This document shows, piece by piece, positions 2,152 through 3,488 of a DNA stretch of 9,527 nucleotides; positions within the stretch are counted from its first letter, which is position 1, and each line of letters starts with the position of its first letter. Made by a program: the position numbers and the translations under genes. The stretch comes from Promethearchaeota archaeon (GTDB taxonomy: Archaea; Asgardarchaeota; Lokiarchaeia; Sigynarchaeales; SOKP01). Where the stretch lies: the NCBI GenBank assembly GCA_016839905.1, contig JAEOTJ010000296.1, positions 1-9,527 on the forward strand, in the 5' to 3' direction. Under the pieces are notes generated by a model. That model was not told the DNA's origin, made no database searches, and saw nothing but the letters and a program-made list of their open reading frames with translations.

Positions 2152-3488
2152 ATGAATATAAATACGATTGCTGTGGTAGGGTTAAGTTGGGGAGATAAAA
2201 TATCTGAAAAACAGGTTTTACCCTATATGAAGGCAAAGGCAAATTTGTCGACTACTTAGCCCAAAAAGCGGACATTGTCGTGAGATTCCAAGGCGGAAAT
2301 AATGCCGGACATACCGTTGTCGTTGATAATGTAAAATATAAATTTCATATAATGCCTTCTGGTGCTATACTGGAAAAAGAAGTTATAATAGGAAACGGAC
2401 TTGTTGTAGATCCTAAAGTATTATTAGAAGAAATCGAAACAGTGAAGAATAATGGTAAGAATTTGAATTTAAAATTAAGTTCTACCGCACATATTATATT
2501 TCCCTTCCACAGAATTTTAGATGGATTAGAAGAAGCGTCAAAAGGCAAAATGGCTGCGGGAACAACTAAAAGAGGTATCGGGCCTACTTATTCGGATAAA
2601 TTTGCTCGTTGGGGTATAAGAGTCTATGATTTAATTAATCCCGATTTATTAAAACTTAAATTAAAAAAACTTTTCGAAATTAAAAAGAAAGTAATCAGAT
2701 CATTGAACCCCGCTTGGGATGCGGATTTAAATGAGATCTACGAGGAATACAAAGAATATGGAAGATTATTAAAGCCGTATGTAATTGATACTGCGCTTTA
2801 TTTAAATAAGCAAATCGATTCTGGGAAAAAAGTTGTTTTTGAAGGAGCACAAGGTACCTTACTTGGTATAGATCATGGGCTATATCCTTTTGGAACCTCT
2901 TCAAATGCTAATGCTCTAGGAATATCCCCTGGAACAGGAGTACCGCCAAAAAAGATAGGAAAGATTGTTGGAATTATTAAGGCATATACATCTAGAGTTG
3001 GAGGGGGAAAATTTCCTACTGAATTAACAAATGATACTGCTCATCAAATAAGAGAACAAGGACATGAATATGGGACAACAACTGGCAGACCTAGACGAGT
3101 AGGGTGGCTAGATCTTTTCAACATTAAATATGGAATAATAATAAATGGAATAGATTCAATTATTATAACTCTACTCGATGCTTTAGAAGGAATTAATCCA
3201 TTAAAAATATGTACTGGCTATGAATTAAATGGAAATCCGTTGGAAGATTGGCCTATTCAATTTGAGATTATTGAAAAATGTAAGCCTGTTTATAAAGCTT
3301 TTGGAGGATGGAGCTCAAAAACAAGGGAAGAATGGACTGAAATTGCACACCAAGGTTATGATGCGCTGCCAGAAACCATGAAAAATTATATTGAAGCTAT
3401 TAAAGAAGAAATACAAACTGATATAGGAATGATTTCTATTGGTCCAAATAGAAATGATACAATCGTTATTGATAAAGACTTATTCTAA
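2152..3488 (+). CDS. purA: Adenylosuccinate synthetase, reading frame interrupted by a 32-nt candidate BHB intron
   Basis: This is the first committed step to AMP: GTP-dependent condensation of IMP and aspartate. Exon 1 (ATG 2152) encodes 15 residues ending W-G-D. The frame then shifts at a 32-nt insert and resumes at GAA 2229 with E-G-K-G-K. Removing the insert gives 434 residues, the usual PurA length. Visible motifs in spliced numbering are GDEGKGK 14-20 (catalytic Asp15), NNAGHT with His43, then [40 protein letters not shown], and [10 protein letters not shown] near the end. The guanine-recognition segment reads TLLD where TKLD is usual: the Asp is kept but the Lys is replaced. Without removal of the insert, translation stops at TAG 2257-2259. 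The next plausible start, GTG 2280, would lack the catalytic loop. The gene lies 3 bp after the longin-like gene, and its stop overlaps the sugar-kinase remnant by 4 bp. No other lesion is seen. Confidence 0.96.
2195..2226 (+). other. Candidate archaeal bulge-helix-bulge mRNA intron (32 nt) in purA
   Basis: As RNA, G2189-G2192 pairs with C2221-U2224 (three G-C and one G-U), giving a 4-bp central helix. On its distal side is a 3-nt bulge, A2193-G-A2195, followed by an inner stem U2196-A2200 with U2216-A2220, a U-G pair and a CUG/CAG hairpin with an A5 loop. On the proximal side, on the other strand, is a 3-nt bulge A2225-U-A2227. Cutting both bulges after the second nucleotide removes 2195-2226 and joins G2194 to A2227, restoring GDEGKGK. 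Because AT is repeated at both ends, removal of 2196-2227 or 2197-2228 gives the same product. BHB motifs are the substrate of the archaeal tRNA-splicing endonuclease, with exons joined by RtcB. The outer exon-exon helix is missing (U-U mismatch, then only a U-G), so this would be a relaxed motif. No RNA data are available here. Confidence 0.72.

What the first reader, a model, noticed from the sequence alone, without database searches (positions are those of the whole stretch)
2189..2231. Tiny bulge-helix-bulge intron inside the catalytic loop of purA
Seen: purA is intact except for 32 extra nt between the codons for W-G-D and E-G-K-G-K, which cause a stop 29 nt into exon 2 sequence. The interruption folds with a 3-nt bulge, a 4-bp helix (G2189-G2192 with C2221-U2224), a 3-nt bulge and a closed inner stem. 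Cutting both bulges between nucleotides two and three removes exactly 32 nt and rebuilds GDEGKGK. Cutting after the first nucleotide would give Tyr instead of the catalytic Asp. Known: archaeal tRNA endonuclease cuts BHB motifs, and a few protein genes (cbf5 is the classic case) carry such introns. Inference: this is a spliced mRNA intron in a purine-biosynthesis gene, at an invariant site and close to the minimum possible size. I know of no described purA intron. Against it: the outer exon-exon helix is not evident.
Basis: partly seen in the sequence, partly recalled or inferred. Interest (0 to 1): 0.9.

Follow-up and report, generated by a model that had tools for sequence, protein, structure and literature searches.

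The report
Tiny spliced introns in Asgard genes
A core gene of an Asgard archaeon is interrupted by a 32-letter insert that looks like a tRNA-type intron cut out of the messenger RNA, and relatives carry similar tiny inserts in several other core genes, so messenger-RNA splicing may be more common in the archaea nearest to eukaryotes than the literature I could search suggests.

Summary
Window purA reads M…GLSWG-G | 32 nt | AT-EGKGKF…; removing 2195-2226 gives an intact 434-aa PurA. The insert folds as described (GGGG/CCCU helix, 3-nt bulges, 6-bp inner stem). It is not a one-off: 9 of 102 Asgard purA junctions read from other assemblies, plus a tenth genome found with an RNA model, carry a 30-32-nt insert at the same phase-1 site, with conserved, covarying structure; each join restores the catalytic Asp. 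One relative has a second 31-nt purA insert. Relatives also have 26-65-nt inserts in RNA polymerase A', rtcB (the presumed ligase), an Elp3-like gene, an SBF transporter and an SCP2 protein. In 18 of 22 cases the best BHB cut is the cut that restores the protein. EndA is present in 16 of 16 genomes tested, 13 with both subunit genes ((alpha-beta)2 type); RtcB in 13 of 14. Best explanation: EndA-spliced mRNA introns, patchily distributed. Splicing itself is unproven: no RNA was available.

The parts
2152..2194 (+). purA exon 1 (ends in the first nucleotide of the Asp codon)
   Evidence: homologs GLSWGDEGKGK
2195..2226 (+). 32-nt intron (predicted)
   Evidence: same-site 30-32-nt inserts in 9 of 102 readable Asgard purA junctions and in G514; covariation
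2227..3488 (+). purA exon 2
   Evidence: PF00709 E 6.9e-155; dN/dS 0.06 against L016
2189..2192 (+). central BHB helix, 5' strand (GGGG, exon 1)
2221..2224 (+). central BHB helix, 3' strand (CCCU, intron)
2193..2195 (+). 5' bulge AG^A; predicted cut between 2194 and 2195
2225..2227 (+). 3' bulge AU^A; predicted cut between 2226 and 2227 (A2225 can instead pair with U2188)
2196..2201 (+). inner stem, 5' strand
   Evidence: 6 contiguous pairs; covariation
2215..2220 (+). inner stem, 3' strand
   Evidence: covariation
2179..2187 (+). outer exon-exon helix, 5' strand (GGGTTAAGT, codons for G-L-S)
   Evidence: 9-bp match, score 21; 8 of 10 intron-bearing genes score 20 or more, 0 of 93 intronless
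2254..2262 (+). outer exon-exon helix, 3' strand (ACTTAGCCC), 27 nt past the 3' splice site

Best explanation
Window purA contains a 32-nt archaeal BHB intron. In the pre-mRNA the exon 1 sequence GGGG pairs with CCCU at the intron's 3' end; with the inner stem and an exon-exon outer helix this presents two bulges on opposite strands. A two-gene (alpha-beta)2-type tRNA-splicing endonuclease would cut both bulges between nucleotides 2 and 3, and RtcB would join G2194 to A2227, rebuilding the Asp codon (G+AT) of the catalytic loop and releasing a 32-nt (possibly circular) intron. Shown: the insert, its conservation and covariation, exact frame and residue restoration, selection on the exons, and presence of EndA and RtcB in relatives. 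Inferred: cutting, ligation, and that EndA/RtcB do it in this organism. The intron is one of a set of mini-introns in several Asgard protein-coding genes with a patchy distribution (frequent gain, loss or transfer; not separated here).
For: Same site in ten other assemblies. RNAalifold found the helix-bulge-stem unprompted: 87% of cells paired against 24-57% when slid; 18 cells with both-sided changes, 0 of 500 shuffles as high. Outer helix score 20 or more in 8 of 10 intron-bearing and 0 of 93 intronless genes. Top BHB cut equals a homology-best cut in 18 of 22 introns; about 1.6 expected from the register counts, my arithmetic. dN/dS 0.05-0.13 in the six pairs with dS above 0.5; 0.24 in the near-identical pair L012/L013; not computable for L023/L029. 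EndA family in 16 of 16 genomes, both subunit types in 13; the catalytic type has Tyr, His and Lys in 14 of 14 read (by eye); His is replaced by Tyr or Phe in the 10 of 15 second-type ORFs that I read. RtcB in 13 of 14. [quoted passage not shown]
Against: No RNA data. The window's own genome is not held, so its EndA, RtcB and purA copy number are untested. U2188-A2225 can shrink the 3' bulge to 2 nt. With the outer helix 27 nt away, the 3' site is closer to a bulge-helix-loop than a strict BHB. L025 and L282 have no contiguous inner pair in the strict register, L037 has 3 of 4 central pairs, and L008's frame-restoring cut ranks second. L029's local outer helix scores 16, a value that 13 of 93 intronless genes also reach, and L025 has none clear. 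G495 (intron-bearing) shows no RtcB in its assembly, and G509 and G520 (intron-bearing) show only the non-catalytic EndA type, G532 only the catalytic one. 'Pairs with a both-sided change' (31 of 500 shuffles as high) and 'further pair types' (91 of 500) are weak alone. The purA introns are related, so they are not independent tests.
Confidence: 0.93

Rival explanations
1. Programmed translational bypassing: the ribosome hops over 30-32 nt of unspliced mRNA.
For: Inserts are short, AT-rich and hairpin-forming, in the size range of known bypass elements (recalled, no call).
Against: In L022, L023, L025, L029 and L282 the Asp codon exists only as G + AY across the insert (one register each); a hop between whole codons cannot make it. 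Exon sequences flanking the cuts pair with the intron and with each other. Structure-chosen cuts also split codons in other genes (rtcB).
Confidence: 0.03
2. Pseudogene or assembly/chimera artefact.
For: Unspliced, the frame is broken at 2257-2259.
Against: Ten other assemblies carry same-site inserts; dN/dS 0.06 between the window and L016; one PurA match in each of 9 intron-bearing genomes; 20 of the 22 inserts tested are 26-33 nt. In the indel control deletions near that size were the two -29 rows, which are the rtcB insert seen from the other side, and rows of -19 to -28 in distant purA loci (L082, L084, L088, L098), which I take to be the boundary with the upstream gene; similar rows of +20 to +25 and +67 there are discounted likewise. 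Rows of +1 or -1 supported by ten references (L184, L285) look like gene boundary or sequencing error and were not followed; -71 (L288) and -11 (L009) rest on one reference each.
Confidence: 0.02
3. Another intron type or DNA-level excision (group I/II remnant, or programmed DNA elimination).
For: The insertion sites lie in strongly conserved motifs, as for homing elements.
Against: 32 nt is too short for a ribozyme core (general knowledge); no Rfam match in the window; BHB geometry explains the cut sites.
Confidence: 0.01

Closest known systems
cbf5 pre-mRNA intron of Crenarchaeota (Watanabe 2002, not opened, cited in papers seen; Yokobori 2009, PMC2738675, passages and Conclusion section read)
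   Same: BHB in an mRNA, cut between bulge nucleotides 2 and 3, hetero-oligomeric EndA, gain and loss between lineages; Staphylothermus copies are 36 bp
   Different: Other phylum and other genes (purA, rpoA', rtcB, Elp3-like, SBF, SCP2), as short as 26 nt, eight found in one genome, long-range outer helix in purA
HVO_1309 5'-UTR BHB intron of Haloferax (PMC7714728, passages read)
   Same: EndA-cut BHB in an mRNA
   Different: Lies in the 5' UTR, not inside a reading frame; that paper names cbf5 as the only other example known to it in 2020
Archaeal tRNA BHB introns, abundant in Asgard tRNAs (PMC11291895, passages read: 92-95% of tRNA genes in three genomes)
   Same: Same motif, presumably same enzymes
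   Different: Host is an mRNA, with coding constraint on the exon strands of the helices

Membership tests
Archaeal BHB (EndA-spliced) intron | 4-bp central helix between exon 1 and intron 3' end | tested here: met
   Window GGGG/CCCU; 4 of 4 pairs in 9 of 10 purA introns, 3 of 4 in L037
Archaeal BHB (EndA-spliced) intron | 3-nt bulges on opposite strands | tested here: met
   5' AG^A, 3' AU^A; 3' side could be 2 nt if U2188-A2225 pairs
Archaeal BHB (EndA-spliced) intron | Cut between bulge nucleotides 2 and 3 restores the product | tested here: met
   Window yes; 18 of 22 introns top-ranked
Archaeal BHB (EndA-spliced) intron | Outer exon-exon helix next to the 3' bulge | tested here: inconclusive
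   Local in L022 and L029; 27-28 nt away in the window and six others; none clear in L025
Archaeal BHB (EndA-spliced) intron | Suitable endonuclease and ligase in the cell | tested here: inconclusive
   EndA family in 16 of 16 relatives, both subunit types in 13; RtcB in 13 of 14; the window's own genome is not held
Archaeal BHB (EndA-spliced) intron | Observed cleavage and exon ligation in RNA | not testable with these tools
   No RNA reads or enzymes available
cbf5 intron | Located in cbf5 | tested here: not met
   Host gene is purA
Translational bypass element | Intact take-off and landing codons that decode the product | tested here: not met
   Asp codon split G|AY with a single register in L022, L023, L025, L029, L282
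Group I/II intron | Ribozyme core | tested here: not met
   No Rfam match at gathering scores; 32 nt

The most novel reading that the evidence does not exclude
Some Asgard lineages splice many protein-coding mRNAs with the tRNA-type endonuclease/ligase. Mini-introns sit in core genes including RNA polymerase A' and, in one genome, the ligase gene rtcB itself, whose mRNA would then need RtcB to be joined (a possible self-regulating loop). The introns move between lineages and land in conserved motifs.
Probability: 0.6. Interest if true: 0.95.

Novelty: new variant of a known kind. Interest (0 to 1): 0.88.

Why it matters
In the papers I could search and open, EndA-spliced introns inside archaeal reading frames are essentially cbf5. 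If these are spliced, Asgard archaea, the closest known archaeal relatives of eukaryotes, carry several protein-coding introns in some genomes, removed by a non-spliceosomal route. That would change gene calling in Asgard genomes (13 of the 120 PurA models listed have an N-terminus replaced exactly at this site), give a testable system of intron gain and loss, and offer a case where a ligase may control its own mRNA.

Tried and rejected
Own genome: not held. Genome-contig scan returned only a Micrarchaeota fragment without insert; viral contigs nothing. MFE folding alone is weak. De novo BHB+ORF scan of about 0.8 Mb: 144 candidates, 16 over a coding threshold; only L022 purA and the G501 rpoA' one were confirmed by homology, the other 14 are unverified and probably chance; it missed G515's own purA intron. 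The tblastn split scans gave much noise (gene boundaries, paralogs such as L247, divergent repeats), set aside by eye; the output was cut, so I re-listed with tighter filters. RNA model R1 in 227 genomes with the stricter filters: 38 genomes have a match at E <= 1. Eleven hits have E <= 5e-6: nine known purA introns, G514, and G410 (E 3.7e-6). G410 and all 19 weaker hits that became loci lie inside stop-free frames of 166-1010 aa, so I take them as chance and R1 E-values as optimistic; 11 further weak hits without loci were not examined. So no copy of this intron in another gene was found at this sensitivity. Negative control: RpoB domain PF00562 uninterrupted in 45 of 45 genomes with a match, one of them (G536) only partial. 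Splice structure is unresolved for rpoA' site b in G510 (65 nt, 3 of 4 central pairs, join gives Lys for Glu; still counted as an agreement) and weak for rpoA' site a in G501 and purA site 2 in L016. L106 had no readable junction by my pattern, L109 lacks the N-terminus, G543 was not fetched. The label 'beta' is wrong for L115 and L119-L123 (His is present; my pattern was too narrow); I read them by eye as alpha. Tree of 60 PurA, quick method: at least 9 changes of intron state, 207-220 of 500 shuffles as low, so vertical descent with losses and lateral gain are not separated.

Full report
OBSERVATION. The window is an AT-rich (28% GC) contig; the named best matches of its PurA are Promethearchaeota, Lokiarchaeota, Thorarchaeota and Hermodarchaeota entries, that is, Asgard archaea. 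The purA frame runs from ATG 2152 to …GLSWGD and then into '[20 protein letters not shown]'. Removing 2195-2226 restores 434 aa with WGDEGKGKF. Local energy is only mildly better than shuffles, so the case rests on comparison.

SAME SITE IN RELATIVES. The protein search already showed it: among the 120 listed PurA models, 13 (P0015, P0024, P0061, P0062, P0070, P0071, P0074, P0079, P0080, P0086, P0088, P0097, P0098) have an N-terminus that is replaced exactly before EGKGKF by intron-like read-through such as LTLY or TPN. I then searched 227 Asgard genomes: 104 have a PurA match at E <= 1e-60, at 105 places. I obtained 104 places and could read the junction in 102 (recounted): 9 carry a 30-32-nt insert at the same point and 93 are intact. 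G514, truncated by its contig end, was added by the RNA model. In L022, L023, L025, L029 and L282 a single register restores the protein best, and it splits the Asp codon after its G, leaving AC on the 3' side; the others leave AT and have several equivalent registers. Each of the nine genomes has one PurA match at that threshold.

STRUCTURE. RNAalifold on ten sequences, not told what to find, gave UGGGG/CCCUA, a 3-nt 5' bulge and an inner stem. On these columns (9 distinct rows) 87.1% of cells pair (shuffled mean 73.9%, 0 of 500 as high; 24-57% when slid by 1-3 columns), with 18 cells changed on both sides (0 of 500) and covariation 0.369 (0 of 500); the number of pairs with a both-sided change (31 of 500) and of further pair types (91 of 500) are less striking. 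The outer helix: in L022 and L029 exon 1 pairs locally with exon 2 over 8 and 7 bp; in the window, L008, L012, L013, L016, L023 and L037 the codons for G-L-S pair over 9-11 bp with the codons for (Y/F)-L-A 27-28 nt past the 3' site. Scores of 20 or more occur in 8 of 10 intron-bearing genes and 0 of 93 intronless ones (maximum 19); L029 scores 16, which 13 of 93 intronless genes reach, and L025 has none clear. Codon choice and kinship could inflate this, but the two different solutions argue for function.

NOT A PSEUDOGENE. dN/dS of exon 2 is 0.05-0.13 in the six intron-bearing pairs with dS above 0.5, 0.24 for the near-identical L012/L013, not computable for L023/L029 (dS saturated). The window and L016 introns are nearly identical although synonymous sites between them are near saturation (pS 0.73), which suggests constraint or recent transfer.

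OTHER GENES. L016 (genome G501) has a second 31-nt insert in purA between the codons of NAGH and TVV. In contigs of G501 taken without regard to content a de novo scan found a 30-nt insert in RNA polymerase A' at GHFGH^IELARP, and reading it showed a further 31-nt insert at DEDGL^PIPSGL. PF04997 in 46 genomes: 44 match, 5 interrupted (G501 twice, G499, G510, G512, G521), 39 not, one of these (G538) partial. Split-alignment scans added in G501 a 26-nt insert in an SCP2 protein, a 31-nt one in an Elp3-like gene and two (31 and 33 nt) in an SBF transporter, and in G499 a 29-nt insert in rtcB inside GGVGY^DINCG (family names are Pfam hits of the uninterrupted reference proteins, and PF01139). For rtcB the join GGVGYDINCGVRL equals that of its relative, with UUGG/CCAA and a 9-bp inner stem. 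In all, 22 inserts were tested (L013 left out as a near copy of L012), each at 33 start positions with the length fixed by alignment: the BHB-best position is a homology-best position in 18; among the 12 outside purA site 1, in 9. The four misses are L008, purA site 2 of L016 and rpoA' site a of G501 (each ranked second) and the first SBF insert (ranked seventh), whose BHB-best cut (GGGG-AU^A…CCCU-AA^A) differs from the homology-best one only by Met for Leu. In G501, eight inserts were seen with only about 130 kb of 643 kb fetched coverable by homologs; three of the eight (both in purA and the second in rpoA') were found in a gene already in hand, so this is not an unbiased rate. Controls: the RpoB domain is uninterrupted in 45 of 45 matched genomes, one partial. 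In the indel control the indels well inside genes with several references are +31 (purA, rpoA'), +50 and +65 (rpoA') and +29 (rtcB); the -29 rows are that rtcB insert seen from the other side. Rows of -28 to +25 and +67 in L073-L100 lie, as I read them, at the boundary with the gene upstream of purA; single-nucleotide rows, -71 (L288) and -11 (L009) were not followed.

MACHINERY. PF01974 is found in 16 of 16 genomes; 14 have a catalytic-type gene and 13 of those also the second type, while G509 and G520 show only the second type in these assemblies and G532 only the first. The catalytic type keeps Tyr, His and Lys (14 of 14 read, corrected by eye); the second type has Tyr or Phe instead of His in the 10 of 15 that I read. 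This matches (alpha-beta)2 EndA, reported to have broad specificity (PMC6379350, passages; PMC12397907, passages). RtcB is in 13 of 14 genomes, not found in G495. Asgard tRNA genes are rich in introns in three genomes (PMC11291895, passages).

DISTRIBUTION. On a tree of 60 PurA proteins (quick method) intron presence needs at least 9 changes, 5 forced by starred branches, about as patchy as shuffled labels (207-220 of 500 as low). The window's nearest relative G499 lacks the purA intron but has other inserts (rpoA', rtcB).

LITERATURE. Ten searches of the held open-access library (some lists were cut at 20) showed, by titles and abstract openings, no paper on BHB introns in Asgard protein-coding genes; adenylosuccinate synthetase + archaea + bulge-helix-bulge gave 0 papers. 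I looked at passages of seven papers and one whole section. PMC7714728 calls cbf5 the only other case as of 2020; PMC2738675 notes predicted but unconfirmed others. No preprints and few subscription papers were searchable, and RNA-seq-based predictions of further archaeal mRNA introns exist as far as I recall (not checked), so priority is not claimed.

VERDICT. An EndA-type mRNA intron is very likely (0.93) on structure and comparison; splicing remains to be shown in RNA. It is a new variant of a known kind, with a wider and more novel reading (widespread mRNA splicing in some Asgard lineages) at 0.6.

Noticed in passing
window 3489-3894, minus strand: Degenerate remnant of what looks like a PfkB-type sugar kinase (NIIDIVGSGDYFLAGFILKYFQ, then stops); family named from recall.
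   Followed up: no
L279 (G499 C222) about 632-661: rtcB, the presumed ligase of this pathway, is itself interrupted by a canonical 29-nt BHB insert in its GGVGYDINCG motif.
   Followed up: yes
L240 (G501 C103), minus strand, SBF transporter gene: Two inserts in one gene; the first can use the same GGGG/CCCU helix and CCCTAA^AC end as some purA introns, in a TGGGGA context, hinting that the introns may be related or target that sequence.
   Followed up: partly
L032, L069 (intact purA): Intronless genes that still carry the TTGGGTTAA / TTAGC(C/T)CA exon pairing (scores 18 and 19); possible former intron carriers.
   Followed up: no
window 1106-1672 and 1720-2148: Small Gtr/Arf-type GTPase next to a 142-aa protein without a Pfam hit, directly upstream of purA.
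   Followed up: no
G521 (L028 and L036): Two different intact purA genes in one genome assembly.
   Followed up: no
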